DNA from: Chrysomallon squamiferum
Taxonomy: Eukaryota > Mollusca > Gastropoda > Neomphalida > Peltospiridae
Direction: 5' to 3'
Assembly: GCA_012295275.1 (NCBI GenBank)
Contig: CM022679.1
Location: 310,001-374,000, forward strand
DNA: 64,000 nt
Made by a program: the position numbers and the translations under genes. Each line of letters starts with the position of its first letter. The first letter of the stretch is position 1. Positions 13,045 through 60,362 of the stretch are shown here, piece by piece. The notes beneath the pieces are model-generated. The model was not told where the DNA came from, made no database searches, and saw only the letters and a program-made list of their open reading frames with translations.

Positions 13045-14557
13045 TTAATAAGCTTCAAAAACTGCTTTACGAGCTTCTTGACATCTCTCATCCAACTCTC
13101 CATCTCCTCCTGAAATTAAAACATCATTTAAACACTTAAAAATATTATTAAACACTTAAAAATATTATTAATTACTTAAAAACATCATTTAAACACTTAA
13201 AAATATTATTAATTACTTAAAAATATATTTAAACATTTAAAAAAAGAACCCCCCCAAAACAACCTTTATTTCAACATTAAAAATAATCATTTAAAATGTT
13301 TAAAGCATAATACCAAGACTTTACATCATAAAAACACATTTAAACATCATGTAAACGTGTGTGTGTTGCTATACTCAGTGTTTGATTCTATGCACACACA
13401 CACATGCATATAGACACATGCATACATACTCTAATACAGACATACACACAAACACATACTGAATTGACATGTTAAAAATCGTAAAAAAAAAAAAAAATGA
13501 AATAAAGATACATTTAAAACAATCAATAAAAACATATTTTATAATAGACATTACCATAGTCCAGTGATCTGATGTCACATGTGTAAATCATTTCTCCATT
13601 CACCCAAATTTCAACAACATTCCAGTCTTTTATCCGCACCAGGTGCACATTGTGCCCATCTCCTTGTAACACAGCTGTAAATATTATACAAATCTTGTAA
13701 CACAGCTGTAATTATTATACAAATCTTGTAACAGCTGTAAATATTATATATATCTTGTAATGCAGCTGTAAATACAATACAAATCTTGTAACACAGCTAT
13801 AAATATTAATATTGTACCAGTCATAAATAATTTATAAATCTTGTAAAAGCTGTTAATATTATATATTTTAACACAGCTGTAAATAATATATAAATGTTGT
13901 AACACAGCTGTATATATTATATTAATATTATACCAGTCATAAATATTGTAACATAGCTGTAAATAATATATAAATCTTTTAACACAGCTGTAAATAATAT
14001 ATAAATCTTGTAACAGCTGTAAATAGTATATAAATCTTGTAACACTGCTGTAAATAAAATAAAAATCTTGTAATACAGCAGTAAATATCATTATATAAAT
14101 CTTGTACTGCTATAAATTTTATAACATGTTCCTAATACTTACTTAAAAAATAATATATGTAAAAGTTAATATTTATATCATTAATAGTTCAAAAACAAAG
14201 GTCTTATTCATTATTTTTTTCTCATTTAGATCATTACAGATAAATATAGATATTATTTTTGAAGTGGGTATACTATATATAAACACAGATATTAATATTT
14301 TACATGTAGATAAATTATGTCTATTATATTTGTTATACACAGATGTATTATTATTTTACATGTGGATAAATTATAACTATTACATATAGTTCTTAAAATG
14401 TTATCACACACATACACACGCACACTCACACATATTTTATATACATCACAAATAAAAACTTACTTAAGAGACCAAGTAGTCGGAATTCTTTGTGATCTAC
14501 AATACCACATGTATCATATGGACCATATCGGACAAAAACTTCAGCATTTTGTGGCAT
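13045..14557 (-). CDS. C10orf53: UPF0728 family protein (C10orf53-like)
   Basis: Three coding exons: 14557-14464, 13674-13555 and 13109-13045. Phases match and the joined frame is 92 residues plus TAA. The start MPQNAEVFVRYGPYDTCG, the central DWNVVEIWVNGEMIY and the C-terminus GGDGELDERCQEARKAVFEAY fit the UPF0728 family pattern I remember (MP..A.V.VRYGPY, EDWNVVELVVNGE, GGDG.LDP.C.EAR.AVL.AY). Length also fits, about 90 residues. Function is unknown. The ATG lies one base inside an exon with a good acceptor (ttttttacag), so an upstream 5' UTR exon must exist, probably near 15000, close to the NFU1 start. The 3' splice site of exon 2 lies at the edge of a minisatellite that repeats that same site (see 13661-14115). 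Confidence 0.92.
13661..14115 (-). repeat. Acceptor-derived minisatellite in UPF0728 intron 1
   Basis: About 14 copies of a roughly 31 bp unit. Read on the gene's strand the unit is tttacagctgtgttacaag plus an AT-rich half. The real exon 2 junction is tttacag|ctgtgttacaag followed by gagatggg, so the unit contains the true 3' splice site plus the first 12 exon bases. The copy at 13663-13680 is the functional one. Two copies carry a different variant (accagtcat). Confidence 0.88.
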
Positions 14558-14732
14558 TCTGTAAAAAATAGAAATCATTAAAATATAGATATAATGATGT
14601 AATGTAACACACACACACATACCAATATATTGAAGTTTGATTACTGTAACAACATTTGCATAACATAAGCTAGCTCTGTTAAATATTTTGTAAGTTATGT
14701 TCAAAATGCTTAATTATATATATAATTTCTAA

Positions 14733-14763
<31 letters not shown>

Positions 14764-15259
14764 TGTTAGCTTATTCAATAGACTGCACCTAAAGTAGTAA
14801 AATATGTGTATAGATTAAAATTTGGTTATGAGATTTAAGAATAAAATGCTTAATGCCATAAAAATGAATATAAACTACGATTAATTAAACAGTATCATTG
14901 ATCTGGCATTAGAGGTATTTTATTAAATACAACTTTTTTTCTCTCTTCTGTATTCGTAGCTATATTTACAATGTGACTTAATGTCTTATCGACTGTCGCT
15001 TGATAACTGATTAACTCGTGTGTAATTTTCTTACTTTTTAAGCTCTTCTGCGTTTGAAACTGTTTCTAGGGAAGCTAAAACTGTCCCGCACTCAAAGTTA
15101 AAAGGAATAAAATAAAACAATATAGTTTTGTTAATAACATGTAACTTATAATAAATATTGCGGTGTTTGTTTAACGTATTTTATACTTGTATATTTTGTA
15201 AATTCATTTATAATGATTTTGTTTGTCTCGCTTCTTATAATTCAATGCATGACAGAAAC
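14558..15259. promoter_or_regulatory. Divergent intergenic region between UPF0728 gene and NFU1
   Basis: About 700 bases separate the two start codons on opposite strands. An (AAT)n run is at 14735-14760. The proximal part (about 14990-15260) is less AT-rich and probably holds both transcription starts and the untranslated UPF0728 first exon. No TATA box or defined motif could be assigned. The shared promoter is an inference from the layout. Confidence 0.45.
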
Positions 15260-18200: not shown

Positions 18201-21200
18201 TGCTCTAACTGTAATGAAAACTTAAGGCAGGAAATGGTTGCAAATAATTCATTGCTCTGTACACAGAATTGAATCAAAGATGCATTTGCTGAAATTGGTG
18301 ACTTTGCAAAAGTGGATGACATGATGTTGAATCTGTTTACATTTTTCAAGAATTGTGGCAAGTGTTGCAGAGTGGTTAGGGGTTCTAGTCCAACGTATAC
18401 CAAAAGCTTCTGGTACACTATTAAATGGGTTACCAGACATGATTCTTATTTCGATGCCTGCATTTTCACACAGATCTTTCACTTAAATGACAAGAAGTGT
18501 ATTTGATATTTCATTTGGAATTTGTGTTGTAAGAAGGCTGGACTTGGTAAGCTGGGTTTCAGTATTTGGGTTAATGCAGTGTTAAATAAAGTTTGCAACT
18601 GTGTGTCAGATGCTCTAGTCGGAGAAGCACACATCACCTTTCTTTTGTGTTTTTCTGCTTCTGCTTCTTTCTTTCTTCTTCCCTCCCTTCTTCTTATCTG
18701 CTGGTCTTGTTTTTGCATGGAACAAAGTTATTTTGTCATATAAGATGTCAGGTATCAGTAATATTTTGTTTCCACCATATTTATATTAAAATATTCGAAA
18801 ATATAATATAAAATACTGAAGCTAATTTTCTTCAAGCTTCCACCATCATGACATGCACAGTTGGTTACAGTAAGTAATGATGTTATTGAACTGTATTCAA
18901 ATTTCTAAACAATACTCTACAAAAGATTTGTTATTGGAAGCTGTGAGGTTTTTGACTCTGTACTATTGTTTCTTACAGCTGGATGATGATGTTGACTGGG
19001 CGATTCTTAAACCAGACATCTACGCCACCATCATGGACTTCTTTGCCAGTGGTCTTCCTGTTTTCACAGATGAACAACCTTCAGCAGATTCAAGTTAGGA
19101 CTTAAAATAAATAGCTGATTAAAACAATTAGAAATTTTCTTGTAAATCAGAATATTTAAGAAAAAAAGAAAATTATTGTTTCCAGATTTCTGTTCCAAAT
19201 TATTGACCCACATGATGATGATGACAGATATTTTATTTTAGTTGACCTAGATGATGATGATGATGGTGATTGTGATATTCTATTTTAGTTGTTGATCTAG
19301 ATGATGATGAAGATGATATTTTGTTTTTGTTGATCTATATGATGATGAAGATGATATTTTGTTTTAGTTGACCATGATGATGATGAAGATATTTTGTTTT
19401 AGTTGACCTAGATGATGATGAAGATATTTTGTTTTAGTTGACCTAGATGATGATGAAGATATTTTGTTTTTGTTGACCTAGATGATGATGAAGATGATAT
19501 TTTGTTTTAGTTGGCCATGATGATGATGAAGATATTTTGTTTTAGTTGACCTAGATGATGATGAAGATGAAATTTTGTTTTAGTTGTTGACCTAGATGAT
19601 GATGAAGATGATATTTTGTTTTAGTAGTTGATCTAGATGATGATTAAAATGATATTTTGTTTTAGTTGTTGATCTAGATCAGTAGTTCTCAACCTTTTTT
19701 TGCTAATGGCACAACTTGGCACACCTGGTTAAATATATATGGAAAATATTTGAATTTTGCAAAATAAAAACATGGCATGTCATAGACAACATAGAACTAA
19801 CTGAAGTTCAGTGTTGAAAGAATGATTTATGAAAGGATCTGTAAGCCAAGCATACGTTTCTGTCTTTAATGACAGTAAATAATTGTTAATGCTTTCGTCC
19901 AGGGCTGTCAGATGAGTAAACACAATAGGGATCATTTCTCTAAAGCAGGTAGAATGCAATACAGGGAACATATCAAGATTGCCTGTGATTGCTCTTTTTT
20001 TCCAAATCACAATTTTCTTTTTGAGGGCAACTAACTTGTCTGCTGAAGTGAGAATATTTTCGTTTTTACCTAGCATACTACTGTTTGTTTTATTTAGTGC
20101 ATTAAATATTTGTTAGGTATTCCATTTTAGACATCCAAAGATGCAACTAAGGTATTCACAGAATTCCTTGTGCAGTTTGTACTTTGCCTTTTGACAGCCA
20201 GCAAATCTCAGTGTGCATTAATAACTTAACATGCTGAGAGTCCATCTCTCTGACCATTCCAATAACTTGATGTGACCTTTAAATCTTCCAGTGATATTTT
20301 TGAAACAAGAACGTCTCTATGTAGAAAGCAATCAGTACAAATGAGATTTGGATTTTCTTTTTCTACAACATTTTGCAGCACACTTAGGAAGATCTCGCAG
20401 CACACTGGTTGAGAATCACTGATCTAGATGATGATAAAAATGGTATTTTATTTTAGTAGTTGATACAGATGATGAAGAAGATGATATTTTGTTTTAGTTG
20501 TTGACCTAGATGATGATAAAAATGATATTTTGCTTTAGTAGTTGATACAGATGATGAAGAAGATGATATTTTGTTTTAGTTGTTGATCTAGATGATGATG
20601 AAGATGATATTTTGTTTTAGTTGTTGACGTAGATGAAGATGAAGATGATGATATTTTGTAAGATTGTTGAGCTAGATGATGACGAAGATGATATTTTGTT
20701 TTAATTGTTGACCTAGATGATGATGATGTTGATGATGATATTTTGTTTTAGTTGTTGATCCAGATGATGATGAGACTGTGGTTATGATCAAGGAATTGCT
20801 GGACACAAGAATTCGACCGACTGTACAGGAAGATGGTGGAGATATAGTGTTCATGGTAACTGTGTGTTTAAAAATCTTAAACATTCATTTATTGAATACA
20901 AATAACAATATACTTTGTACTTGTATATATTGGATCCAAATTTCAGCTGAATGAGATAGCTTTAAGTATTTCTATATTTCTATGTACTGTATATATATAT
21001 GTATTTCTATGTCTAAACAGTTACAATCACAATTTACTGAAAGTTTTGTATTTACTTAGAAAATTCCTGTTTTACAAAATCTCATCAACAAATATACAGG
21101 TGTGAGAGAAATGAACTGTGATTTGATAATAAGTTAAAAAAGTTGTGTCACTCAGGGTTTTGAGGATGGTGTAGTCAAACTGAAGATGCAGGGATCATGT

Positions 21201-21859
21201 ACAAGTTGTCCCAGTTCAGTGGTGACACTGAAAAACGGAGTTCAAAACATGTTACAGTTTTACATACCTGAAGTAAAAGAAGTCCAACAGGTAAATGTGT
21301 ATTTTATAATAATACATAAATCTTCATGTATTTTATGATTAATACTAAAATCTTTGTGTATTTTATAATCAAAAGGTTAATATTCGTATGTTTTATACCT
21401 ATAAGAGGTTATAAATTGTGGGTTTTTGTTGACAAGTAATATTTTCTGTTGTGTTATCAAAGGTAATAGTTTATGATATGAGGTATTAGCTTTATTTTTT
21501 TCAAGTACATAAAATAATGTTAAAAAAGAGAACATGAAAAATGAAGATTTATGTGTTAGTGGAGATAGATGTGGAGTCTGATGTGTTTGTGGAGATAGAT
21601 GTGGAGTTTGATGTGTTTTGTGGAGATAGATGTGGAGTCTGATGTGTTTGTGGAGATAGATGTGGAGTCTGATGTGTTTGTGGAGGTATATGTGGAGTTT
21701 GATGTGTTTTGTGGAGATAGATGGGAAGTCTGATGTGTTTTGTGGAGATAGATGTTTTTGTAATGGTGACATTTTATGTGATAGGTTGATGATGAAGCTG
21801 ATAGTGTTGCTGAAGCAGAGTTGAAGAAACTAGAGGAGAAACTTGGAGATAAAGACTGA
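15260..21859 (+). CDS. NFU1: NFU1 iron-sulphur cluster scaffold, mitochondrial
   Basis: Eight coding exons: 15260-15324, 16098-16210, 17224-17359, 17603-17669, 18979-19093, 20752-20855, 21156-21290 and 21785-21859. They join without phase error into 269 residues. NFU1 hands [4Fe-4S] clusters to mitochondrial targets such as lipoyl synthase. The N-terminus is Arg-rich and unacidic, as in a targeting peptide. The Nfu N domain starts near residue 63 ([16 protein letters not shown]) and includes [20 protein letters not shown]. The NifU-like domain holds [19 protein letters not shown] and the cluster-binding Cys pair C-T-S-C at about 215-218. An acidic helical tail follows. Intron 1 begins with GC (AG|GCAAGT), required by phase. 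An in-frame ATG at 15245 would add five residues. Introns 5 and 7 and the stop region carry minisatellites. Confidence 0.95.
17990..18350 (+). pseudogene. Possible decayed hAT-type transposase fragment in NFU1 intron 4
   Basis: Broken frames read [19 protein letters not shown] and then, after a stop, [12 protein letters not shown] and a further helical stretch. The order of an Asp-Gly motif, a Leu/Thr helix and I-H-C-x-x-H-R resembles the RNase-H-like region of hAT transposases, where a DG..., then HC.IHR.AL pattern is common. It is too short and damaged to be sure. No terminal repeats were found. Confidence 0.3.
18361..18460 (+). repeat. Dispersed repeat, possible SINE fragment
   Basis: The last 40 bases (gggttaccagacatgattctt, continuing atttcgatgcc) recur at 43811-43850 with about six differences. 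The first part contains ggttctagtcc, which fits an RNA polymerase III B box. This would suit a tRNA-derived SINE, but an A box and target duplications were not established. Confidence 0.4.
19680..20421. mobile_element. Non-autonomous or truncated hAT transposon
   Basis: The left end is cagtagttctcaacc and the right end reads, reversed, cagtgattctcaacc: 13 of 15 bases match. The element is flanked by a perfect 8-bp direct repeat, atctagat (19672-19679 and 20422-20429), the target duplication length of hAT transposases. The CAGTG-type TTCTCAACC terminus is known from hAT families. It is 742 bp and sits inside the NFU1 intron 5 minisatellite, so it arrived after that array formed. Confidence 0.88.
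19780..20076 (-). pseudogene. hAT transposase fragment inside the hAT element
   Basis: An open stretch of 98 codons reads, in part, [20 protein letters not shown], then MFPVLH, and later WLTDPF. That order (a Lys-rich helix with LELW-like core, G-N-x-x-x-F-P, then W-x-x-D-P-F) is what I remember from the middle of ZBED5/SCAND3/GTF2IRD2-like hAT transposases. It lacks the DNA-binding N-terminus and the catalytic and dimerisation parts, so it is inactive. Confidence 0.55.
21545..21765. repeat. Minisatellite, about 30 bp, in NFU1 intron 7
   Basis: Seven copies of gatgtgtttgtggagataga followed by tgtggagtct, differing by single-base indels. It lies 20 bases upstream of exon 8. I see no copy of exon sequence in the unit. 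Confidence 0.9.
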
Positions 21860-21995
21860 ATTTATACAAACATTTGTGTTAAAGACTGAATTTATACAAA
21901 CATTTCTGTTAAAGACTGAATTTATACAAACATTTGTATTAAAGACTGAATTTATACAAACATTTGTGTTAAAGACTAAATTAATACAAAATGTT
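21841..21995 (+). repeat. Stop-codon-anchored minisatellite at the NFU1 3' end
   Basis: Five copies of a 30-bp unit, aaagactgaatttatacaaa then catttgtgtt. The first copy starts in the coding exon: its aaagactga is the last two codons and the stop. Each later copy repeats Lys-Asp-stop in the 3' UTR. Copies differ by only one or two bases except the last. Confidence 0.9.
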
Positions 21996-24407: not shown

Positions 24408-27400
24408 AAAATAAAAAATAAAATAAAATCCACTACAATAAATGTTTTATGGATAATCTACATGTAAATAATATATAGAATAAATTTAATTAAAAAAAAA
24501 AATATATATATTTATATATTGTTAATATTATAAATTACAGAAATAGTACAATTTTATTACCTATGTAAATAAAATAAATATTAATAATATGAAGTAAAAA
24601 GAATGTGTTCTACTACAGGAGTGACGTCACAGGTGTTTAATAACTGTAACGTACTTTGTGCTGACGTGTACAGACCAGTGTGCGGCTCGGACGGACGAAC
24701 ATACAGTAACTTTTTATTCAAATGTTTTTTCATACATATACATACATACACACATATATATACATACATATACATACATACACATATATATACATACATA
24801 CACATACATACACATACGTACACATATACACATATATATACATACATATACATACACATACACATACATACATACACATATACAGACATACATATACATA
24901 CACATACACACACATACACATATACAGACATACATAGACATACATATACATACATACACATACACATATATACATACACATACATACACATACATATACA
25001 TACATACACATACGTACACAAACATACACATACATATACATACATAGACATACATACATACACATACACATATATACATATACATACACATGAATTCTTT
25101 TTTCCAAAACAATAAAATACGATACTGTTTTTTATTTGCTCACATTTCGTTCATTTTTATCAGTTAGAAATGTGTGTTTGGATGCACGTTCTTGTTTTTG
25201 ACAGGAATTCCCTATTTGTTTTAAATTTAGAGTGATTTTAGAAAGACATGTTTAAACCTACTTAAAATATTTAAAAGGTCTATGTAGATATGTATGTATC
25301 TACGCATGTATATGTATGTAAGTATGTATCTGTCTACCTTTCTACATAACACTTAAATTTTTTATTTATTGTAAGAAACCTTTACAAAAAATTTTAATGT
25401 AAAAGGAAACTCATAAAATTCTTTTTTCCTCGAAAGACTCGTATTTTGAAAACGATCTATTTCTCTTTCATTAATATATCGCTCATAACAGATTTGAAAA
25501 TTATTTTTCACGGCAGTTTTCGAAGGGTATATAATATTTTGTTTCTTGGGACAAACGTTAAAGAGATTGGCTGTTTGTAAACACGTGATATCAGTCTACG
25601 TGATGTGATTTAAATGTTGTGGACGGTTAAACAGTGGTTGTTTGTTAACAAGCAACGTCATATGATTTACACCTCAGGCAATCAGTGTGAGTTGGGTGTG
25701 GCCGCCTGCAGCGCAAGGAAGCACGGGAGAACTATCTATCTGGTACATGACGGTCGGTGCGGAAGTACAATACAGGCATCTGGCTGTAATCAGATTTGTG
25801 ATGAGGAAAGAGAACCAATTTGTGCTACAGATGGTAAAGTATATGGTACGTACGTTTTGAAAAAAATGTATATATGTTCTGAATAGAAAAAATGAATTTA
25901 TCTTTTTAATAATAAAATATATTCTAAATATGTATATATATGTATGTTACTTACAGCAGTCGTGTGTAGTACGTGTATGTTACTTACAGCAGTCGTGTGT
26001 AGTACGTGTATGTTACTTACAGCAGTCGTGTGTAGTACGTGTATGTTACTTACAGCAGTCGTGTGTAGTACGTGTATGTTACTTACAGCAGTCGTGTGTA
26101 GTACGTGTATGTTACTTACAGCAGTCGTGTGTAGTACGTGTATGTTACTTACAGCAGTCGTGTGTAGTACGTGTATGTTACTTACAGCATTCGTGTGTAG
26201 TACGTGTATGTTACAGCAGTCGTGTGTAGTACGTGTATGTTACTTACAGGAGTCGTGTGTAGTACGTGTATGTTACTTACAGCAGTCGTGTGTAGTATAT
26301 GTATGTTACAGCAGTCGTGTGTAGTACGTGTATGTTACAGCAGTCGTGTGTAGTACGTGTATATTACAGCAGTCGTGTGTAGTATATGTATGTTACAGCA
26401 GTCGTGTGTAGTACGTGTATGTTACTTACAGCAGTCGTGTGTAGTACGTGTATGTTACTCACAGCAGTCGTGTATAGTACGTGTATGTTACTCACAGCAG
26501 TCGTGTGTAGTACGTGTATGTTACAGCAGTCGTGTGTAGTACGTGTATGTTACTCACAGCAGTCGTGTATAGTACGTGTATGTTACAGCAGTCGTGTGTA
26601 GTACGTGTATGTTACAGCAGTCGTGTGTAGTATATGTATGTTACAGCAGTCGTGTGTAGTACGTGTATGTTACAGCAGTCGTGTGTAGTACGTGTATGTT
26701 ACTTACAGCAGTCGTGTGTAGTACGTGTATATTATTACAGCAGTCGTGTGTAGTACGTGTATGTTACAGCAGTCGTGTGTAGTACGTGTATATTACTTAC
26801 AGCAGTCGTGTGTAGTACGTGTATGTTACAGCAGTCGTGTGTAGTACGTGTATGTTACTTATAGCAGTCGTGTGTTGTACGTGTATGTTACAGCAGTCGT
26901 GTGTAGTACGTGTATGTTACTTACAGCAGTCGTGTGTTGTACGTGTATGTTACTTACAGCAGTCGTGTGTAGTACGTGTATGTTACAGCAGTCGTGTGTA
27001 GTACGTGTATGTTACAGCAGTCGTGTGTAGTACGTGTATGTTACTTACAACAGTCGTGTGTAGTACGTGTATGTTACTTACAGCAGTCGTGTGTAGTACG
27101 TGTATGTTACTTACAGCAGTCGTGTGTAGTACGTGTATGTTACAGCAGTCGTGTGTAGTACGTGTATGTTACTTACAGCAGTCGTGTGTAGTATATGTAT
27201 GTTACTTACAGCAGTCGTGTGTAGTACGTGTATGTTACAGCAGTCGTGTGTAGTACGTGTATGTTACAGCAGTCGTGTGTAGTACGTGTATGTTACAGCA
27301 GTCGTGTGTACGTACGTGTATGTTACAGCAGTCGTGTGTAGTACGTGTATGTTACAGCAGTCGTGTGTAGTACGTGTATGTTACTTACAGCAGTCGTGTG

Positions 27401-28902
27401 TAGTACGTGTATGTTACAGCAGTCGTGTGTAGTACGTGTATGTTACTTACGGCAGTCGTGTGTAGTACGTGTGTGTTACAGCGGTCGTGTGTAGTACGTG
27501 TGTTAGATGCAGTCAAAATATGTAGTATATGCCTGTTACATATAGTAATATATGTTTATTACATGCAGTAAAAGTGTGTAGTACATGTATATGTTACATA
27601 TAGTAGAGGTGTATAGTACATGTATATGTTACATATAGTAAATGTGCAGTATGTGCGTGTTACATATAGTAAAGGTGTATGTGTTACATACAGTAAAGGT
27701 GTATATTTTGTGTATATGTTAGATGTAATAATTCTGCAGTATGTATAAAATTTAAAGAGTATTGTATATATATGCTACGCAAAACTTTGTTCAGTTAATA
27801 GATAAAACAACTTTTCCTATTATTTATTTTCTCATATATTTTACAGCTTTTGTTTTAGCAGAGACTAGACTCGAGAGTTTAAAAAACAAATAAGTAATAA
27901 CATTTATAAACTTGATTTATAAACTGCAATGGACAGTCAAAATAACTTTTTGCAGCAAACAAATGTCGGTTCACTTTGGCGCAATGTGAACATGCAAGGA
28001 ATGGAACAACACTGGGTATTCTGATGTACGGAGACACCTGTCCACATCCACGAGAAGTTAGTAAATACTCTTACTACAGCCACAACAACATGTTACTATT
28101 ACAACCACAACTACGTTACTACTACAGCCACAACAACATGTTACTATTACAACCACAAGAACATGTTACTACCACAACCACAACTACAGGTTATTACTAC
28201 AACCACAACTATGTGTTATCACCCCAACAGTTTATCCGGCCTTTTATCCGGCAAGCTTGGGACTGGACTGACTCGAATTTGTCACTCTACTTCGTTCACT
28301 ATTTAGAGCTGCCAAGCTGCCTTTCTGTTGTTGTTGTTTTGTGTGATAAAACAAAATTACCATAAATTCGTATAAATAATAACAAAAAACAGGGTAAGTG
28401 TGTGCAGCAGTTGACCTAATGAAAATGACCATAAATTCGTATAAATAATAACAAAAAAGAAGGTAAGTGTGTGCAGCAGTTGACCTAATGAAAATGACCA
28501 TAAATTCGTATAAATAATAACAAAAAAGAAGGTAAGTGTGTACAGCACTTGACCTAATGAAAATGACCATAAATTCGTATAAATAATAACAAAAAAGAAG
28601 GTAAGTGTGTGCAGCAGTTGACCTAATGAAAATGATGCGAGACTCGCACACAAAGGCCAAACGGAGAACTTAAAAATAGCCATTACAGACCCCTTTCAAA
28701 ATTAACCAGTTTAAAAATAGCTAGTTTCTTTTTTCTTTCTTTCTTTCTCTTTTCTTCTTCTTCTTCTTTTCCCTATCTTTGTAAACAAATAGCTGGCTTT
28801 AAAAGCAGCCACTGCTGAAAATTGTAGGTTATTATATCATACTTTTATATCAGTTGTACTGGAATAACTACACTCTGCATTTTCACTGCTGACATTTTTT
28901 AC

Positions 28903-29514: not shown

Positions 29515-29720
29515 CTCAACCCGCTAGTAAACATTTGTTAGTAAACATTAACTTGTAATTTTTATTACAGGACATTTAAATACAAAAATGTAGTTTACTT
29601 CTTTGTAAACATTAACTTGTAATTTTTATTATAGGACATTTAAATACAAAAATGTAGTTTACTTCTTTGTAAACATTAACTTACAATTTTTGCTATAGGA
29701 CCTTTAATACCAAAATGCAG
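29515..29720. repeat. Minisatellite, about 63 bp, three copies after the Kazal gene stop
   Basis: Copies of gtaaacattaacttgtaatt, then tttattacaggacatttaaa, then tacaaaaatgtagtttactt. The first begins about 20 bases after the stop codon, in the 3' UTR. Confidence 0.85.
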
Positions 29721-29814
29721 TTTACTTGTTTATACAAAATATGCACATAATATACGTATGGGTATAAATCAGGTTTGTGTTTATGTATGATGTGTATATT
29801 TGAATACTTTATTT

Positions 29815-37608: not shown

Positions 37609-40600
37609 ATGTCGTTGAACACTGCTCATGCTAATGGTGGAGTTCTTCTTTTTGCTGGAGAAAGGTATTTGACTATATTTTGTTAAACAGTATAAAATTA
37701 TATAATAAATGTCACTCTGTTATTGTCACAAAATATGGATTTACTTTCCGGATGTAGTTGACAAAATTCAGTCATCATTCATTAATAATTGCATAACAAA
37801 TGAAAAGCCAACCAGAAATTATTATTATTATTGTTTAAAACATATAAAAATAAAGAAAATTAAGAAATAATAATTAAAAAACATTAAATTCAAGACGAAT
37901 CAGTTTTTATCTTACAATATGAATATCCATATTTATGTAACGGTATCATTCACAATCACATGATCATATGATGATGATTCATTCAGTAATAAATAAACTT
38001 TTAGATTTAAGTGGGAATCATACAATTACAGAATTAGTTGGTAATCACGAAGATGTCATGTTTTTGTTTAACAGAAATATTTCAAACAGTCTCAGATTAT
38101 GAATAATCAGAATATACAATTGGACTAATTTTGTTCAAATCTCTAATAGAGATAATAGAAAACTTAATCGTAAATTCTTTTCCCGTTTTCTTCCAGAATA
38201 CTTATATTTTATGATGGAGTTGAAATGACTTTTGAAGGCCCTAAAGATATGCCCCATTTTAAAGGGAAGAAACATGGTAGAGCACTGTTGACAACTCATA
38301 GAGTAAGAATATTGTATGACTGCTGTAATCAAGAAATATTAAAGTGAATTGTTTATATTTTGATATAAGTTCACCCACAACAGCATTTAAACATTATATA
38401 TTAACAGTTTAAAATAATAATAATAAAAAGAAGAAAAAAAACAAGAAATAACCCACATAACTACAAAAAGATATCTAAAGAAGAAAAAAGAAAAACCAAA
38501 AGAAAAAAAAAAGGCATCTGTTGTGATAAAAATTAATAAATTAACTGCAGATAAGCATATGTGAAAAATGTGTGTGTGTGGTTTGGATTTAAGATTTTCT
38601 TGTGTATGAAAAGATGAATCTATAGTTAATTTGAGTAGTTTTTATTTATTTATTTTTTTATTATTATTAATGTATAGTTTCAAAATGAACTGTGATTTTG
38701 AGTTAGTTTTGTTTCTCAAACTGACAAAATTCTCTGCAGTAAATATAATAACTGATTGCCTCAAACTGTTTGAATTTTTCCTTCATACAGAAGTTAGTTA
38801 CTGAATAATTTTGCTATTGATTGTTAATAAATATTTTTGACTACTTTTTTCTGTATTGGATTTGCTTTAGATATAATTAACTTAGCATAGTCTTCCTTGG
38901 AAAGCTTTTAAATGTTGTTCACTGATACAAATGTTGTTAACTTCATACTCTGTATACAGTACATGTTATAAATGTAATTTATTTATATTATTTGTTACAT
39001 AAAAGTACACCACAAATAATTATATATTTTATACAACAGATATTATGTATTTTATACAAATGATATTATATATTTTATACAAATGATGTTATATATTTAA
39101 TACAGGTAATATTCACCAGCTCAAACCCTAAAGACATTTTCCAGTCATTTAGTATCCCTTTCTACACCATGCGAGACATGGAACTGGAGCAGCCCATATT
39201 TGGAGCAAATTACATTAAAGGACGTGTGGTTGCAGAACAAGGAGGTGAACATTTTTTTAATTAATAGCACAAACAACTGGATAATAAAAATAAGTAAAGT
39301 AGAATAGTAACTGAAGTCTCAGTTGATTGTAGAAGTATACAAACATGCTGCTTGGCTCAGTTAGAAAATAAATAATATGAAATGTGTTGCTAGGCTGTAT
39401 TAGATTAGTAATTATTTGCTTATATATTTAAATATCTATTGCATTCAGGAAATTGGAGTGGAGAGGCAAAATTCAAGATGTACTTCAACAAAGGAGGAGC
39501 AATTGAGTTTGGTCAGGCCATGCTGAGGGCAGGACAGCTGGGTAGATTTTGTTTATAGTATATGATAGAATCTGATAGAATGTAATATTTAGTAATTTAA
39601 TGTAGTCAACTTTATAATTATTTGGCTGTCAAATATATATTCCACTCTTAAAACTGTGGTTTTTAAAGATATTGTTTTTGTACTGCATAATGAGTTAATA
39701 CCATTTAATTAGAGACTTAATATTTCAAAGTGGCAATATGTAAATCTCTTAATTTGATAAGTTAATTATGATTTTGTAGAAAAACAGTAAAACAAAATTG
39801 TCTTTTTTATACAGCGATGTCATATCGACAGCCACAGCAGCCTCCTGCATACAGCCCTCCCACAGGTAACATTTACCCTGCTCCACCACCATCGTACCAG
39901 GCCCCCCAGACACCTTACTATGACTGGGTTCCATATAACACATTCCCGAATGCACCACCTCGTAAGTTGTATCTATGTCTACATCCTAACAGTATCAGCT
40001 TGTAATTGTTATATCTGTGTGTGAAGGTGACAACCTGTCTCCTCGTTAATATGTAAGAGATGTTAGATTTCCTTAAAAATTATATAAGCTATGGTAAAAT
40101 GTTGTTCTGTGGTAGTCACTCTGTTTACATCATAGCATATAACCTTGTCATTTGGTATATCTGTGTCTACATCATAACATGTAATCTTGTAATTTGTGTT
40201 ATATCTGTTTACAACATAACAGTATCACTTTGTAATTTGTATTGTATCTGTTTTGACATCATAGTATAGAACCTTGTAATTTGTATTACATCTGTGTTTA
40301 CATCATAATATATCACCTTGTATTTTGTGTTATATCTTTGTTTGCATTATAGCAGTAATTTGTGTTATATGTGTCTCCATCATAAAATCTTATAATTTGT
40401 GTTGTATCTGTATATACATGATAACAGTATCACCTTATAATTTGTTACATCTGTGTCTACGACATAACAAGTGCAGTTTGTAATTTGTGTTATATATCTG
40501 TCTAATCATAACTACAGCTTGTAATTTGTTTCCTGTTTTTTGCACTGGCATCATCTGTAAGTTGTTACATTTGTATTTAATATTAAAAGGATAAAATTTT

Positions 40601-46900: not shown

Positions 46901-49900
46901 AACCATTGGGTGATTTGACACGGAATGACCCCATTTCATTTTGTTTTTGAAAAAGTCACAAAAAGCCTCTGATGAGTCTTTATGAAAGTGTTTATGATTT
47001 ATGATTTATGTTATCAAAGTTATGTTTCGAATATTTTGCCATGTCTTGGATAAACCGACAGACTAAATACTGTATTAGGAATATAAGATTTCTCCGAAAT
47101 ATTACACTTTTCCTAAAATTTTATTGTTTCTTAAATCTTAATCTGCATATTAAGATTTAAGAAACTTTTTATAATGACTAAACAAACAAATAAACCATAA
47201 TTATAAATGCCCTATTAAAATGTCAAGTGTTTAAATAGTTCTGAAATAACTTACAGGAGAAATATTCATTCTGGGACAACTTACAGAAATATTCTGGATC
47301 TTCACAACAGAGGATTGTTCCATAGAATCTTTCCTGAAGGCAGGTACATAATATTTAAAAAATTTAAATTTTTTTTTTTTTTTTTTTATAATTCTTTTTA
47401 ACAGATGTGTTCACAATAAAACATTTCAGTAGATGTATTAATATTAAAACACTTAAATAGATGTGTTCACAGTCATACATTTCAATACGTGTGTCACAAT
47501 AAAACATTTTAACAGATGTATTCACAGTCATACATTTCAATAGATGTGTTCACTGATAATTTCAACAGATGTGTTCACAGTGATAATTTCAACAGATTTG
47601 TTTACAATAAAACATTTTAATAGATGTGTTCACAATAAAATATTTTAACACATGTATCAGGAATAAAACATTTTAATAGATATATTTACAATAAAACATT
47701 TTAACAGATGTATTCATAATAAAAACATTTTAATAGATGTATTTACAATAAAACATTTTAAGAGATGTATTTACAAAAGCAGATTTTAATAGATGTATTC
47801 ACAATAAAACATTTTAACAGATATACTTACAATAAAACATTTTAATAGATGACCTTACAATAAAACATTTTAACAGACACTTTGATTTTATTTAATTGCA
47901 AATAAAATAAACTTGTTAATAGTTAATGTGTTTGATAGGAGTATTTTTGACAAACAAGTAATTTGAACATTGTAGAATGAACAATATTCTCAGTACCATC
48001 CCTTCGTTTAATTTGCACCAGTTACGCTGATACTCACCATCCCTTTCACAATGCTGGCAAGACCACTGGATGTATTCATAATAAAACATATTAATAGATA
48101 CATTTACAATAAAACATTTGATGTGTTGACAAGTGATACTGATGATTTACAATTTGTTATAAATCTGAATGTTTTATTGATTATTCACAGATGTTTGTTT
48201 TTATTTGGTTATTCACACTTTTTGTTTATTTACTCATGTTTCTAATTGCTATGCAAAGTATGTTTCATTATTATTATTATTTTCTTCATATTATTAAGGT
48301 GAACATTTTCTAAAGTTTTTAAATTATCAAATTGTTTTATTTTGTGAAAGTTTCAAAATCATGTTTTTTCTTAATGTAAAGTTTCAAAATTAAAAATTAT
48401 TTTCAGTACGGCTGAACTATCAAGACTTGTGTCAAGTCCGCAGTGTGTGTACTGTGGCTTTGATCCCACTGCTGACAGTCTTCACATAGGAAACCTGTTA
48501 GCCATCGTCTCATTACTTCACTGTCAGAGAGCAGGCCACAGCACCATTGCTCTGGTGAGTTTTACACACGTTTTAAAAAATACAGATAATCTGAGTAAGA
48601 ATACTGAGATTTTAAACAAGGAATTCATTTCATAATGTCAGGTAAGAGTTTATTAAAGAAGTGATTTAATGATAATTTTATTAATTTTGTTTGAGGTGGG
48701 AGGAGCCACTGCTCAGATTGGTGATCCTAGTGGCAAAACAAAAGATAGAGAGAGGATTGGAGTGTCAGTGGTGGAAGAAAATGTTGTCAAGATAACAGAA
48801 AATATCAAGCGAGTTGTTGATAATCACAAAACTTTCATTTGGAACAGTGAGAAATCATTACCATCTATAAGGTAAACATGAAACATGAAAACATTGTTTT
48901 GTAACATGATTATATTTAATATTACAACATGAAATAATCCATTTAATTACTGTTACAGTCACAGTACAGGTTGTGAAAACAATAAATTAAAACAATTCAG
49001 TATTGAATGAAAATATTTTATTAATAAATAGTTTTATAACTAACTACTTTTTAGTTGTTTATTTAACTTTAAAGTAAAGTAAGTTAAAATATCTTTAAAA
49101 AAATTACCAGTCAACATTATTATGTGTTTATAAAATGGATTATTTTTCACAGGGTGTTAAATAACATGGACTGGTACAGAGAAAGAAACGTCATTGAATT
49201 TTTATCCACAGTTGGCAGAAATTTCAGAATGGGCTCAATGTTGTCTAAACACAGGTAAATGTTTTTTTAACACTTGTATTTACTTGTTCTTTTTTTAACA
49301 CATGCATTTACTTATTGTTTTTTTAACATGTATTTACTTATTGTTTTTAAAACTCATTATTTACTTATTGTTTTTAAAACTCATTATTTACTTATTGTTT
49401 TTAAAACTCATTATTTACTTATTGTTTTTAAAACTCATTATTTACTTATTGTTTTTAAAACCCATTATTTACTTACTTGTTTTTTAAACAAATGTATTTT
49501 AAACAAAATTATTGTACTGGAACAACTTGTTTACCTTGTTAAAGAAAATGATACAATATATTGTTTTATTTTTATGTTATAATCATTGAGTATGTATTTT
49601 AATACTAAACTGATGTGTATTTTGTTTTGTTTGGAGTGTTCAGAGTCGACTGAAGAGTGCAGATGGAATGAGTTTCACTGAGTTTACTTACCAGATCTTC
49701 CAGTCATATGACTGGCTTCATTTAATGGAAAAATTCAACTGTTCTGTTCAGGTTTGAGATAAAATGTTTGTTTTTTTAAACTTTTCTCTTAAATCAAAAT
49801 AGTTATTGCATCCTCACTGTGAATAAACATAAGTACTCAGAATAAAAAGAAAGTAAAAGTCCTTTTCTTAGCATTTATATATTTAAGGTATATTGTGTTA

Positions 49901-52636
49901 CTGTCACTTAGTTTTCACCAATAATTAAAATTTATCTTATAAAAGCAAATAAAATATGGCATCTGTAGAATGTTTGTCAACAGAGTCCTCTTTATTAAAT
50001 GAAAGAGAAAATATAACTTTAGCAACTATAATAAGTAAAGTGAATCTGTTGTTACAGATTGGGGGCAATGATCAGCTGGGAAATATTTCTGCTGGCTATG
50101 AATTGGTGACAAGAGTGACAAACCAGCCAGTGTTTGGTGAGTATGTTTAACTCTTTACCTATATTATCTCTTTACTTACACTACATAGATTTATCTCTTC
50201 ACTTACATTATATAAATTTATCTCTTCACTTACATTATATAAATTTATCACTTTACTTACATTATATAGATTTATATCTTTACTCACATTGTATAGATTT
50301 ATATCTACTCACACTATATAGATTTATCATTTTACTCACACTTTATGGATTTATCTGTTTACTTACACGTTATGGATTTATCTCTTTACTTACACTTTAT
50401 GGATTTATCTCTTTACTTACATTATGTATATTTATCTCTTCACTCAAATTTAATGTATATATTTGATTTGATTTTAATTTCATTGTGTCTTACAAACTAG
50501 GAATAATGGTGCCGCTGATAACAACAGCCAGTGGAGATAAGCTAGGAAAGAGTGCTGGCAATGCTGTGTGGCTGGATCCAGTGAAAACTTCTCCATACGA
50601 ACTCTATCAGGTGAAATTCACTTCAGTAACAACAAACACTCATCTAGTGACTTATATCTATATGATAATGTTTTGCTTTATTTAAAAAGTCTTTATATTA
50701 AAATTAAATTGTTGGTTTGTTGAAATCACTGTACTTGATGAAGTATTTTGTTAAAGTAAAAATAATTTTTGTTTATTATTTCAGTATTTTATTAATTTGC
50801 CAGACACTGATGTAGAAACGTATTTGAAGTTGTTTACATTTCTTTCTGACAAACAAATAAAGGAAGTTGTGGAAAAACAAAAGGTTTTGTATAACTTCTG
50901 AACATTTACTTAAATAGACAAATATACTGAGATTAACCAGCATATCTATATTACAGTGATAACAAAGAGCTGAAGGTTTAGTTAAATAGACAAATATAGT
51001 ATGTTTAAACAATGTACCTATATTAGAATGATATTTAAGTACTGTGAGTAAAATGAACTTGTAGAAACGTGTAATAAAAATATTTAATAAAACTAATTTA
51101 TTTATTTTATGAAATTATAAGAAAACAATAATAAATACCAAGTAAAAGTTTTTATTTTCAGAAATCACCAGAAAACAGACCTGCTCAGAAGAAAATAGCA
51201 GAACAAGTCTTGTTGCTGGTTCATGGAGGTAGCATTTTAGCTAATCTCTAATTATTGCTTGTTCATGTAGATGGCATCTTATATAATTCCTAATATTACT
51301 TGTTCATAGAGAGCATTTTATATAATTCCTAATACTACTAGTTTATGAAGATAAAATTTTATATAATTCTTAATGTTAGTAATAAGGAGGTTTATCTCAG
51401 TTAATGATAAATGGTTGTGTTTAATACAGAGGAGGTTTATCTCAGTTAATGATAAATGGTTGTGTTTAATATAGAGGAGGTTTATCTCAGTTAATGATAA
51501 ATGGTTGTGTTTAATACAGAGGAGGTTTATCTCAGTTAATGATAAATGGTTGTGTTTAATACAGAGGAGGTTTATCTCAGTTAATGATAAATGGTTGTGT
51601 TTAATACAGAGGAGGGCTTATCTCAGGCAAAGCAGTGGACAGAGGCTTTGTTTGGGAAAACATCATCAAGTTTGGAGAAACTGAATGAAGGTGAACTACT
51701 ACAGTTATTTCACAATGCAGCATCATGTACAATGATGTATCAGCCTGGTACAACTGTACTCCAGATGTGTATGAAAGCTGGTTGTTTTCCACGTGAAGGT
51801 TTCAGCTTTGTTAATTAATGTTATATTTAAAAAAAAAAAAAATCTGTGTGATCAATCTCTGCTACTAATCTAAAATCATGAAAAAGCACTAGCAGGTCTT
51901 CTCTGTCTGTAAGATAAAATACTGCATCATGCTAATTTAATTTTATTATTCTAAATAAAATTTGTTACTGTAGAAAGTTAAAATAATTTACTGTTTTAAA
52001 TCCATTGTATAAAAACAATTTAAAGAATGTGCTTTATTTGCTTCCGAGTTCAACCAGTGACTTAAAAGTAATTTTAAAATCTTTGAAAGGTTTACTGAAT
52101 CAATAAATTGTCTGAATTTGCCATTAATTTAATTTCTTCTTTTATAAAAGTTATTAACTAATAGTTTGAAAAAATATTTAGTGAATATATATTTATTTTG
52201 TTGTCATGGTTACAGTGGATGGTGAGAGGATAATTAAAGCTGGTGGTTTATACATCAACCACTGTCGACACAATCAACCACAGCTGGTTGTTGTTCCTGA
52301 TGAGCACATTTTGTCAAATGGTATCACACTGCTCAGAGTTGGTGAGTTGACAAGTTTTTCAAAATCCACTTTCCAAACATTAAATAGAAACATAACAACT
52401 GCAGTACAAACTGTCCTGTAATTATTAGTTAACTTAACAGTTAAATTAAAAACTGTTAACTTTACAGCATGGGATAATAACTGAAAAATAATTTTAAAAA
52501 AAACATTACATTCACATGACATATATTTGTTTAATATCTTGTATTTTCTTATATTAGATGATTAAATATTTTAAAATAATAAACAGAACAATTTTTCTCT
52601 TTATGTTAATTAAAATAAATAATCCCCTACTAATAG

Positions 52637-52919: not shown

Positions 52920-52950
<31 letters not shown>

Positions 52951-55900: not shown

Positions 55901-56203
55901 TTCAACAAATATATTTGTAAGTTTATAAACATTTAATTTGTAAAGTAAAAACAAGATAGAATTTAATTTCTTAAATACATTTGAGATAACTCCTGTCAGT
56001 ATCACAGAGGTTGGTTTCTTGTGGATACAAAAGTTAGTCACAGAAAAAATAACTTTTTGTTTAATTTTATAGATATATATAATTTTTATTATTATTTGAA
56101 CATTAACAATAAGTGATACTTTTGTGTTGAAATGCTAATAGGTAATTAATCAAGTTTTAATTCTTTCTCTATCTAGTGATATTGCTGAGTTTACCAGCAG
56201 AAG
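52817..56203. other. YARS2 3' region and POLR3D upstream region
   Basis: Contains an A-rich tract with AATAAA words (52921-53010) just after the YARS2 stop, then AT-rich DNA without recognisable genes. POLR3D must have a 5' UTR exon in the right part, because its start codon follows an acceptor (tctatctag at about 56176). A donor-like cacgtaagg at about 55520 is a candidate end of that exon. Frames at 55247-55498 and 55445-55684 overlap on opposite strands and look spurious. Confidence 0.5.
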
Positions 56204-59200
56204 ATGGCATCAGGATCAGGTGACAAAACTCCTCAACTTCCACGTGGTTTGATAGGTCGTAGAGGTGCTCCGACTGGCAAAGCAGCACGGTGACTTTTCA
56301 TTTCTTACTTTACTTAAAAAACACAGAAACATTTCAACAGGCATAAAATATATTTTTTAATGTTACTAAATAATGGCAGCAAAAGAGAAAGAGGAAATAA
56401 ATGGTTTTATAACCATTAATATACAAAGTATTAATTAGTGTAAAACACATAGCCCCAGAAAATGTCACCTGCTAACACCAGTTTATTTGTTTTTTATGGC
56501 GGGGAAGAGAAATGTGCAAAAACTGTGCATGAACAGTGTGTGGTTGTTGTAATATGTAAAGTTTTAAAATAATTGTAGTGATAGGTAAAAGAGCTACTAT
56601 TGTTCTAATATTTTAATTTTTAGTCTGCCATCTCTGAAAGGACCAAGGGACTTAACCCTCGGTGGTGTTCCGAAAAAGGTGTTTACACCAAATATACCAT
56701 CAAGAAAAGATAAAGCTAAGTAAGTATTAATGTTCAATTTTTCTTTTATGTATTTATTTTATTTCAATTGTTAATTTCCTTAAATCTTTTACTAAAATAT
56801 TTTGGTCTTCTTATGGTTTTCTCCAGTCTAAATATTAAAACAAGAAATCAATGTTTTTTAATGTGATTTGTTTAAAGCAGTGGTTTGTTTATTTGACAGT
56901 TGTAGTTACTAAGTGTATTTGAGATAATCACTCAGTGTTAATGTTCACATGTGTCTAGTATTTTAATACATGGAGTTATGTACACAAAATCATTACAGTA
57001 CCTGATACTTATTTTAATTTCCAGTAGTAAAAAATCAGAAATTTAAATGAAAACTGATCTAAATCAGCAGTTAAACACAAAAAAAATATCTCTGAACAAT
57101 ACCTTTTAACAATGTGTGTGTGTGTGTCAGAAAATAAAAATGAAGTTATTCCTACATTATTTTTATTTATATCACTTAAAAGAATTCAGATTGCTTGTTT
57201 GTACACACATGCATGCAGCAAACATTTAATGACTTGAAGTGGAATTAGAATAAACATCCAATTAAATGGGAGTATTTTGATGAGGTGATCTAACTCAAGG
57301 TGATAAGAATTTGTTTATAGACTTTACATCCGAAATGTGTTTTTTTATAGAATGAAGAAAACAATTTTGACTTGATAGATTTTGATGATATTATTAAGTA
57401 ACTGAAATTTCTGAAAATTTAGTGTGTTACACCCTTAGATATGTTAACAAGCACTGTAAGTATTGGCACCGTGAACCATCTGTTAAACTGTTGTATAATG
57501 ACTGTTAATTATGTGACTTGTTTTATTCAGATCATCTCCAGTAGTCAGTACACCACGACATACTTCTGCTGAGACAAGTTGCCACAGTAGAGAGGAGTCT
57601 CATAGAGACAGGGGCAGGACCAGAGGTCGAGGTCGGGGCAGGGGTCAAGACAATGTCATCCAGTCTCATTCCATATTTGAACAAGGTCCTGGAGAAAGAC
57701 ATTTACCTAAAGGTGGTAAGTGTCTTTTAAAAAATTCTGTTTCATATATAAACATTTTTAAAAATTTCAAATCACTTTCCAAGAGTGTCTGAAATAAAAT
57801 TTGATTTGCTGGTTTACCAAACCAAGGAATTTGAGATAATGTGTCAGAAAGAATGATTTACATATTAAAGATTGTCTGTTTGTTTAAATATTGCAGGAAA
57901 CACTACATATGATGGCGGTGACAGGATTCCAACATCACGAGTGACAATCAAAAAAGAGAAGAAAGATGCAGAAAGATCAAAAGAAATTTTGGATCATCTA
58001 CTAAGAGATGATGTATGTAATAACTCTCAGACTTTAGTCCATATATTGTATGTTAGATTACTTACACATCTTTTAATAAAACATTTTACTGTGTATAATA
58101 CCACACATTAATGTAAAGAGCATACTAGATTACATATATATTTTTATAATACAACACTTTATTGTATAGTGTATACTAGATGACATACATATTTGTATAA
58201 TACCACACATTTATGTATAGTGTATACTAGATGACATTATACAAATACATATGTAATTTAGTACACAGTGTGGTATTGTGCAAATATACTTTACAGTATA
58301 CTAGATTACATACATATTTGTGTAATACCACATTTTACTGCGTAGAATATACTATATGATGTACATATTTGTTTAACACACTTGTTGTGTGAATTAGTTT
58401 ATTTCAGATGTACCAGAAGGTGATCCCAATATGATACCTGTACACCTCCCTCTTGAAGCAAGTGTTAAAAAAGAAGAAAGAATTGAGAACATTCCTAAAG
58501 TGAAGTCAGAATCTGGCGGTATAAATACTTTTATCCTGTTGTAATCAGTATATTAAATACTATTTGTTTATAATATTACATTAATTATTATCTGTATATT
58601 TTACTTTTCTACTCCAATTTTAATACATTATTATCTTTTTATATTGTTTATGCTGTTACAATCAATACATTACCTGTTATCTTTGTATATTACTTTATAC
58701 TGATATAATCAATATGTATCTATTACCTTTATATATTTGTTTATAGCTTTATAATCAATACATAACTGTTGTCTTTGTATATTACTTTATGAATACTGAT
58801 TTTTTATATCAATACATTTAATATTAACTATTAATTTTATATAATAATATAACCAGAGGTTACATGTATCAGTTAACATGGATATTTTGTGCACAAAATC
58901 TGAATTAAGACAATACCTCGTCCTCTCATATATCATTGATAGAGATATGGCTGATATGGAAGATACAGCAGAGAGTACAATGAAGGTCCCCTCAGAGTTT
59001 ATAAAAAATATTCTAATTGTTTTGGTTTCTCTTATTTCAAAATTACAGATATTGCTATGGAATCTGATGAGAGTTCCAGTCAGAAATTATCACAGAGAGT
59101 GCAATATAAAATAGACAGTGGTGTTTTCACAGCACGAGACCTGCTTTCAAAATGTGCCAAAACAGGTAAATACATAGACCTTCTTTCAAAATGTGCCAAA

Positions 59201-60362
59201 ACAGGTAAATACATATACCTTCTTTCAAAATGTGTCAAAACAGGTAAATATAGACCTTCTTTCAAAATGTGTCAAAATGGGTAAATATATAGACCTTCTT
59301 TCAAAATGTGTCAAAACGGGTAAATATGTAGACCTTCTTTCAAAATATGTCAAAACAGGTAAATATAGACCTTCTTTCAAAATGTGTCAAAACGGGTAAA
59401 TATGTAGATCTTTCAAAATGTGTCAAAACAGGTTAATACAGACCTTCTTTCAAAATGTGCCAAAACAGTTAAATACTTAAAGATCTATTTTCAAAACAAG
59501 ACAAATCATGTAAATAAGTAGATCTGTTTCCAAGATAGGACAAAAAGATAAATGTATTGATTTGCTTTCAGTATGTAATCATAACAGGTTAATTTGTAGA
59601 CACTGTTTTTGCTGTACATTTATTATTAGCATTATTCTTTCTTTTTTCTCTTTTTCACTGAGCATTTGTTTAGTTATCTGTAGTTACATTATTTTTATTT
59701 TCAGAGAGTGGAGAACAGTTGTTATTTTTTCATCTGCCTGATGTTTTACCTGGACTTCCCCCCAGCAGGGATGAGCAGCCCAGAAAGAAATCTCAAACTG
59801 AGCAGACAAAACCAGATGAACGCAATGAAGACTCTGTACGTTGTTAAAAATTAGCTGAGTAACAGAAAGATAAGTTTTATTTACATGTGTCTTGTTTAAT
59901 ATAAAAACTGTTTTTATTGCGTACATTGAATACTTTATGTTGTAGGAAAATATTTCTAAGAAGTTGGCAATGTGTTCTCTTTCTGACTTCTCTGAAGGTT
60001 TTATTGGCAAACTACAAGTACGGAAATCAGGGAAAGCTCAGCTTGTTCTGGGCAGCGTTAAACTTGATGTGTCTGTTGGGACTCCATGTGGATTTCTACA
60101 GGTAAAATTCAGTTTTCTCTATACTCTTAACTTTCTTCTATCTTAGTATTTCAGTACTTGCAATCTACTTACATCTTCAGTTTCATTCAGTTAGAAGTGT
60201 ACTTCACTTGTGTACCTCTAGAAGTGTGCTTGCACTCTACTTCACTATAATTTATTCAGTTTCAAATCTCAACTATTTACTGACTGACAATACAAGTCCT
60301 ATATTCTGTGGCTTGTGTAGCATTTTATTTTTCCTACAGTAACATTAGAAAAGAAAATCAAA

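What the first reader, a model, noticed from the sequence alone, without database searches (positions are those of the whole stretch)
13045..59600. Minisatellites anchored on exon boundaries: repeat units contain the splice site or stop codon plus exon bases
Seven arrays in five different genes have units that include functional boundary sequence plus adjoining exon bases: UPF0728 exon 2 acceptor, NFU1 exon 6 acceptor, NFU1 stop, PPxY-gene stop, YARS2 exon 10 donor, YARS2 exon 11 acceptor and POLR3D exon 6 donor. At least five more arrays begin right at a donor or end right at an acceptor (WBP2 introns 2 and 5, YARS2 introns 5 and 7, PPxY gene intron 1). In each case the boundary copy must be the source, since it is under selection. 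This suggests that exon edges act as seeds for local tandem amplification, for example through replication or transcription-linked slippage, and that introns grow by copying their own ends. The caution is that minisatellites are also common away from genes here, so overlap by chance must be excluded.
Basis: partly seen in the sequence, partly recalled or inferred. Interest (0 to 1): 0.88.

Follow-up and report, generated by a model that had tools for sequence, protein, structure and literature searches.

The report
Tandem repeats crowding at exon edges
In a repeat-rich stretch near a chromosome end of what is probably the scaly-foot snail, short tandem repeats sit at the edges of coding exons about twice as often as random placement predicts, and several of the repeat units are copies of the exon edge itself, splice site included.

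Summary
All seven arrays said to contain a splice site or stop codon do (one, a YARS2 donor, only by unit similarity). Of five said to abut an edge, four lie within 30 bp; the fifth rests on one outlying copy.

The window holds 7 modelled genes with 34 introns. Of 24 intronic minisatellites, 16 end within 30 bp of an exon edge; random placement gives 6.8-9.5. The 30-bp limit was chosen on the window.

Same limit, three neighbouring genes (31 introns): 8 of 16, against 3.1 (p=0.001-0.002) to 5.2 (p=0.07) as the null allows more overhang. New cases appeared; one array repeats 53-58 coding bases plus the donor.

Three of 6 stop codons checked also carry an array (p=0.0002, partly post hoc).

Limits: crossing of edges is not in excess; compact ancestral introns (150 bp unique DNA or less) would explain the clustering; 150 kb elsewhere shows no peak (1 seen, 0.8 expected, low power).

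Best reading: ordinary local duplication, tolerated at edges because one copy keeps working, plus a probable, unproven bias toward coding edges.

The parts
13663..14117 (-). 31-bp array over UPF0728 exon 2 acceptor (exon 13674-13555); unit = TTTACAG|CTGTGTTACAAG plus intron
   Evidence: (12 exon bases, p=0.023); genome search finds only itself and its own extension
13116..13243 (-). 20-bp array ending 6 bp from UPF0728 exon 3 acceptor
19259..19679 (+). distal part of the NFU1 acceptor array, separated from 20420-20773 by a hAT-type insertion (19680-20421) flanked by an 8-bp repeat ATCTAGAT
   Evidence: sequence; one search lists 13 junction-like copies on this side; 77-88% identity to the proximal part
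20420..20773 (+). 35-41-bp array over NFU1 acceptor of exon 20752-20855; 22 exon bases in unit
   Evidence: (p=0.008)
21298..21369 (+). array 7 bp inside NFU1 donor at 21290
21551..21755 (+). 30-bp array 29 bp from NFU1 last acceptor at 21785
21850..21990 (+). 30-bp array over NFU1 stop codon (TGA 21857-21859)
24731..25091 (+). array 25 bp inside donor of Kazal-like gene intron 2
   Evidence: simple sequence, weak case
25860..25922 (+). array 14 bp inside donor of Kazal-like gene intron 3
28071..28228 (+). array 14 bp inside donor of Kazal-like gene intron 4
29541..29731 (+). 64-bp array 25 bp after the Kazal-like gene stop codon
34285..34602 (-). 38-bp array over PPxY-gene stop codon (unit TGTTAAATTTACAATAC...); 3 coding bases
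35667..35787 (-). 24-bp array 12 bp inside PPxY intron 1 donor
39012..39104 (+). 23-bp array ending 1 bp from WBP2 acceptor at 39106
40120..40354 (+). 44-bp WBP2 array, 158 bp from the donor at 39961; one outlying copy adjoins the donor
49260..49513 (+). 27-bp array 5 bp inside YARS2 donor at 49254; unit similarity extends into the exon
   Evidence: (p=0.008)
50164..50444 (+). 27-bp array 27 bp inside YARS2 donor at 50136
50898..51033 (+). 72-bp repeat 14 bp inside YARS2 donor at 50883
   Evidence: p=0.031
51230..51378 (+). 39-41-bp array on YARS2 donor at 51228; unit matches 16 exon bases
   Evidence: (p=0.038)
51385..51626 (+). 45-bp, 97% identical array over YARS2 acceptor at 51610; 17 exon bases
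   Evidence: (p=0.008); genome search finds only itself
59137..59476 (+). 39-bp array over POLR3D donor at 59165; 29 exon bases, copies of CAG|GTAAAT
   Evidence: (p=0.008); genome search finds only itself and its own extension

Best explanation
These are minisatellites born by local tandem duplication of 20-85-bp pieces; those searched for are private to their locus (four of five).

Shown: in this region their ends lie at the edges of coding sequence 1.6-2.4 times as often as random placement within introns gives, and 3 of 6 stop codons checked carry one too. In at least nine arrays the unit contains the edge itself with 3-58 coding bases. Where an orthologue could be compared (two arrays), the copy at the edge is the ancestral, selected one. 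The other copies lie in the intron or 3' UTR, and in the five arrays counted several still carry a good splice site.

Inferred: such duplications survive because one copy of the edge goes on working (first donor, last acceptor, first stop), so introns lengthen by copying their own ends. Beyond that tolerance, coding edges attract duplication, plausibly because they are sharp transitions (exon GC 43%, intron GC 28%) at which replication or repair restarts. That last step is a proposal.
For: Edge clustering: window 16 of 24 arrays; flanking genes 8 of 16; together 24 of 40 against 9.9 expected (no overhang), 12.7 (half a unit) or 14.7 (a whole unit), p<=0.00025. It holds when any one of ten genes is dropped and over five TRF thresholds (half-unit overhang, p<=0.0004).

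Unit similarity runs into the exon at p<0.05 in 11 of 24 edge arrays, about 1 expected (one of the 11 is simple sequence).

New cases in the flanks: PhoPQ-like gene A repeats 53-58 coding bases (LDNPHYYFNQLTGPSYI) plus GTGAGT in an 81-bp unit over 1,159 bp, and duplicates another acceptor once.

Source direction: exon parts conserved in other snails for POLR3D and gene A; paralogue B has no array at gene A's donor position.

Stop codons: 3 of 6 against 2.3% per random non-genic point. Spare splice sites within one bit of the real one: POLR3D 4 (0.02 expected), gene A 16 (2.5 expected).

Four of five arrays searched match only themselves or their own extension in the 404.6-Mb genome.
Against: Crossing arrays are not in excess (6 of 40 against 6.0-8.9). 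With a whole-unit overhang allowed, the flank result alone is p=0.067; at a 60-bp limit it is p=0.12-0.23.

If unique intron DNA was 150 bp or less when the arrays arose, 21.5 of 40 are expected (p=0.25) and the excess vanishes; at 200 bp p=0.03, at 250 bp p=0.006.

The random 150-kb sample has 1 array end at 0-30 bp against 0.8 expected.

No general polarity: edge arrays are not consistently less diverged toward the exon (11 of 17 positive, p=0.38). In YARS2 exon 9 the copies share differences from the boundary copy.

Everything comes from one 104-kb region, and the pattern was first noticed in the window itself.
Confidence: 0.55

Rival explanations
1. No seeding. Duplications arise anywhere; introns were short when the arrays formed, so an array had little room and lies near an edge by default. 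Later insertions lengthened the other side.
For: Array-free introns here have median 258 bp. Capping unique intron DNA at 150 bp makes 24 of 40 unremarkable (21.5 expected, p=0.25). Drawing free space from array-free intron lengths raises the expectation to 17.6 (p=0.02) if capped at the actual value, 13.3 if not. Random sample elsewhere shows no peak.
Against: Needs 150 bp or less of unique intron, below the lower quartile (178 bp) of array-free introns. Does not explain stop codons, where no intron confines the array: 3 of 6, p=0.0002. Does not by itself explain unit similarity running into exons in 11 of 24.
Confidence: 0.3
2. Border-induced selection: deletions that would remove an array next to an exon often hit the exon and are purged, so arrays at edges simply survive longer.
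For: The process is modelled for human introns (PMC9748784, passages read).
Against: Predicts older, more diverged arrays at edges. Here edge arrays are if anything less diverged (median match minus indel 84, against 79 interior and 80.5 non-genic; edge against the rest p=0.18). A null result of modest power.
Confidence: 0.1
3. The arrays are kept because spare splice sites help, making splicing robust or giving alternative isoforms.
For: Many copies keep strong sites (splice matrix trained on the window introns, these included). In POLR3D the first two extra donors would add 13 or 26 residues in frame. A human minisatellite with multiple splice donors is on record by title. A C. elegans minisatellite is over-represented near alternative splicing regions (PMC4039745, passages read).
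Against: Extra sites in gene A and YARS2 exon 9 lead to in-frame stops. Stop-codon arrays have no splice role. Far copies decay in UPF0728 and POLR3D.
Confidence: 0.05

Closest known systems
Human interferon-induced 6-16/IFI6 minisatellite providing multiple splice donor sites (Nucleic Acids Res 1995, doi 10.1093/nar/23.11.1854; only the title seen, in a reference list; the paper is not held; details recalled)
   Same: A minisatellite that supplies repeated splice donor sites
   Different: One human gene; here at least nine edge-bearing arrays in several genes of one region, on donors, acceptors and stop codons
[quoted passage not shown] potato RdRp case, PMC4974935, passages read)
   Same: In the potato case the duplicated piece crosses an intron-exon boundary and carries splice signals with it
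   Different: There a new intron arises; here an existing intron is lengthened, in some arrays by many copies
Variable internal tandem repeats at exon-intron boundaries in human segmental duplications (PMC2812944, passages read)
   Same: About 30-bp units altering gene structure at boundaries, sometimes with new introns
   Different: Comparison of recent human paralogues; no test that arrays cluster at exon edges in the passages read
CeRep25B minisatellite of C. elegans (PMC4039745, passages read)
   Same: A minisatellite over-represented in introns near certain splicing decisions
   Different: One repeat family at many loci; here four of five arrays searched are private to their locus
Subtelomeric minisatellite-rich DNA (recalled)
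   Same: Region lies 0.3 Mb from a contig end with 19% minisatellite cover, against 5.4% in 15 random stretches
   Different: The edge preference is a further property on top of density

Membership tests
Minisatellite (VNTR) | Head-to-tail units of about 10-100 bp | tested here: met
   140 TRF rows of all periods; 57 merged arrays with period 10 or more
Minisatellite (VNTR) | Copy number varies between individuals | not testable with these tools
   one assembly only
Splice-site-bearing minisatellite (IFI6 type) | Unit contains a splice site joined to exon bases | tested here: met
   UPF0728, NFU1, YARS2 acceptor, POLR3D, two in PhoPQ-like gene A; YARS2 donor by similarity only, its copies mostly without a good donor
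Splice-site-bearing minisatellite (IFI6 type) | Several copies are used in splicing | not testable with these tools
   no RNA data held; strong spare sites only
Intron gain by tandem duplication (Rogers AGGT model) | A new intron is created from exon sequence | tested here: not met
   arrays lie within or beside introns between separate exons; where an orthologue was aligned (POLR3D, gene A) the coding sequence continues without an added exon
Dispersed element or introner | Same unit at many places in the genome | tested here: not met
   four of five arrays searched match only themselves or their own extension; the NFU1 unit has six weak matches elsewhere; the search skips very common words
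Border-induced selection | Arrays next to exons are older (my prediction from the model) | tested here: not met
   edge 84, interior 79, non-genic 80.5 median match minus indel; edge against the rest p=0.18

The most novel reading that the evidence does not exclude
Edges of coding sequence, splice junctions and stop codons alike, are mutational seeds for tandem duplication in this genome, so that introns and 3' UTRs grow largely by re-copying their own borders, leaving trains of spare splice sites.
Probability: 0.3. Interest if true: 0.85.

Novelty: new variant of a known kind. Interest (0 to 1): 0.6.

Why it matters
How introns lengthen, and where new minisatellites come from, are both open questions. 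If exon edges are preferred birthplaces, it links the two, predicts trains of competing splice sites, and gives a directly countable test in any annotated genome. It also warns that gene finders may choose the wrong donor in such trains: the simple finder used here picked the second POLR3D copy.

Tried and rejected
A polar age gradient from the exon outward: visible by eye in UPF0728, POLR3D and, less evenly, gene A, but not general (11 of 17, p=0.38). An older age for edge arrays: not seen. Ab initio chaining of whole genes over-linked, so single predicted exons were used for the random sample, and homology-anchored models for gene A and gene B; CK1 exons came from the ab initio finder plus reading.

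Literature: ten searches. In what was listed (titles and starts of abstracts, several lists cut) the nearest was a C. elegans minisatellite over-represented near alternative splicing regions (PMC4039745); none reported clustering of minisatellites in general at exon edges. Absence from print is not shown.

Dropped before counting: arrays under 60 bp (with a 40-bp limit 24 of 48 lie near an edge); arrays with half or more of their length outside an intron; gene A's last, truncated intron with one array (L020:1-135); two arrays beyond the last CK1 exon found; stop codons of YARS2, POLR3D, CK1 and genes A and B (uncertain or not located). Approximate: boundaries of CK1 introns 7-8 and gene B's first intron. 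In one search array overlaps deeper than 60 bp were excluded, which removed one array lying 838 bp into a predicted exon. About 10.5 kb of the 150-kb random sample reads N. Other limits for the flank genes, no overhang: 5 bp 5 of 16 (p=0.0002), 15 bp 6 (p=0.002), 60 bp 8 (p=0.12).

CK1, Kazal-like, hAT and ZBED labels are recalled from motifs, with no family search run. The species name rests on contig counts, not on a sequence match; the paper gives 444.4 Mb for the genome, the assembly here has 404.6 Mb.
Full report
WHERE. The window is bases 310,001-374,000 of a 31.7-Mb contig of a 404.6-Mb genome in 22 contigs, 15 of them chromosome-sized. The best RPC4 hits are abalone and limpet. The published scaly-foot snail genome has 15 linkage groups and seven unanchored contigs, 22 in all, though the paper gives 444.4 Mb (PMC7142155, passages read). 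Chrysomallon squamiferum is therefore very likely; this is an inference. Minisatellites (TRF period 10 or more) cover 20.3% of the window and 34.6% of its modelled introns. With arrays of 60 bp or more only, cover is 19.2% in the window, 35% in the 10 kb before and 15% in the 30 kb after, against 5.4% in 15 random 10-kb stretches. So the window lies in a repeat-dense segment 0.3 Mb from a contig end.

GENES. Seven genes were modelled so that each reads in one frame: UPF0728, NFU1, a Kazal-like gene, a PPxY protein, WBP2, YARS2 and POLR3D; 41 exons, 34 introns. Pfam supports five, on draft models. The WBP2, YARS2 and POLR3D models lack their first exons.

THE SEVEN JUNCTION ARRAYS. Aligning each junction to its array shows trains of copies carrying the splice site and exon bases at the UPF0728 exon 2 acceptor (12 exon bases), NFU1 acceptor (22), YARS2 acceptor (17) and POLR3D donor (29). 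The YARS2 donor (16) is weaker: its copies are 68-76% identical and most have lost the donor. NFU1 and PPxY stop codons lie inside their arrays. The NFU1 array is one array split by a hAT-type insertion with an 8-bp target duplication.

CHANCE. Each array was placed at random within its own intron, keeping lengths. Window: 16 of 24 arrays end within 30 bp of an exon edge, 6.8 expected, or 9.5 when a whole unit may overhang (p=0.0006). Because the 30-bp limit came from the window, I fetched its flanks and modelled three more genes: CK1, and two PhoPQ-related genes, A and B, anchored on their Gigantopelta aegis relatives. There 8 of 16 arrays lie within 30 bp: 3.1 expected with no overhang (p=0.001-0.002), 4.4 with half a unit (p=0.022), 5.2 with a whole unit (p=0.067). 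Both together: 24 of 40, p<=0.00025 under all three overhangs. Fourteen of the 24 are at donors and ten at acceptors.

A NEW EXAMPLE. In gene A, 4.6 kb before the window, the array after the seventh modelled exon has an 81-bp unit, about 14 copies in 1,159 bp, with 53-58 coding bases (LDNPHYYFNQLTGPSYI; the exact join is ambiguous by 5 bp) plus GTGAGT. Paralogue B has no array at that donor; the nearest in that intron lies 363 bp away. The exon is 92% identical to its Gigantopelta relative. So the exon is the source, and the array is probably new to gene A. An acceptor of gene A is duplicated once.

HOW FAR INTO THE EXON. Extending each unit across the edge and comparing with the 129 other exon edges gives p<0.05 in 11 of 24 edge arrays, about one expected; one of the 11 is simple sequence. 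Crossing itself (6 of 40) is what tolerance alone predicts (6.0-8.9). The excess is at 0-30 bp inside the intron.

STOP CODONS. Three of six stop codons checked have an array end between -20 and +30 bp; a random non-genic point has 2.3% (p=0.0002). Splice sites alone therefore are unlikely to be the cause.

RIVALS. Compact ancestral introns would suffice only with about 150 bp or less of unique DNA; at 200 bp p=0.03 and at 250 bp p=0.006, while array-free introns have median 258 bp. Border-induced selection predicts older edge arrays, which are not seen. The random sample, with ab initio exons, shows 1 array end at 0-30 bp against 0.8 expected, while the same crude method on the 104-kb region gives 9 against 1.9; the contrast between the two is not significant (p=0.095). 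A genome-wide rule is therefore not established.

SPARE SPLICE SITES. Within one bit of the real site there are four further donors in the POLR3D array (0.02 expected), eight acceptors in UPF0728 (0.8), three in YARS2 exon 9 (0.06), 16 donors in gene A (2.5) and 17 acceptors in NFU1 with its insertion (4.2) (the scoring matrix was trained on the window introns). Molluscan RPC4 proteins align across the POLR3D junction with no repeat-sized insert, so the first donor is the conserved one.

VERDICT. A real local pattern, repeated in adjoining genes; ordinary duplication with tolerance explains its existence, but probably not all of its density at edges. The mechanism of that extra bias is open.

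Noticed in passing
window 19680-20421: hAT-type insertion (ends CAGTAGTTCTCAACC / GGTTGAGAATCACTG, 8-bp target duplication ATCTAGAT) inside the NFU1 acceptor array, with a fragment of a ZBED-like reading frame on the minus strand; labels recalled from motifs.
   Followed up: partly
window 1-64000 and L017-L020: Subterminal segment with 15-35% minisatellite cover against 5.4% in 15 random stretches.
   Followed up: partly
window introns: Minisatellites cover 35% of modelled intron DNA but about 15% of the rest of the window outside modelled introns and exons (from the counts).
   Followed up: no
window 59137-59284: The 39-bp POLR3D unit is 13 codons with no stop in the first copies, so use of the second or third donor would add 13 or 26 residues in frame.
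   Followed up: no
L020 and L017-L019: Two PhoPQ-related (PF10142, autocrine proliferation repressor A-like) genes lie about 86 kb apart with similar exon layouts; their arrays differ.
   Followed up: partly
window 25941-27501: Largest array of the window, 33-bp unit x 50, 90% matches, 95 bp inside a donor of the Kazal-like gene.
   Followed up: no
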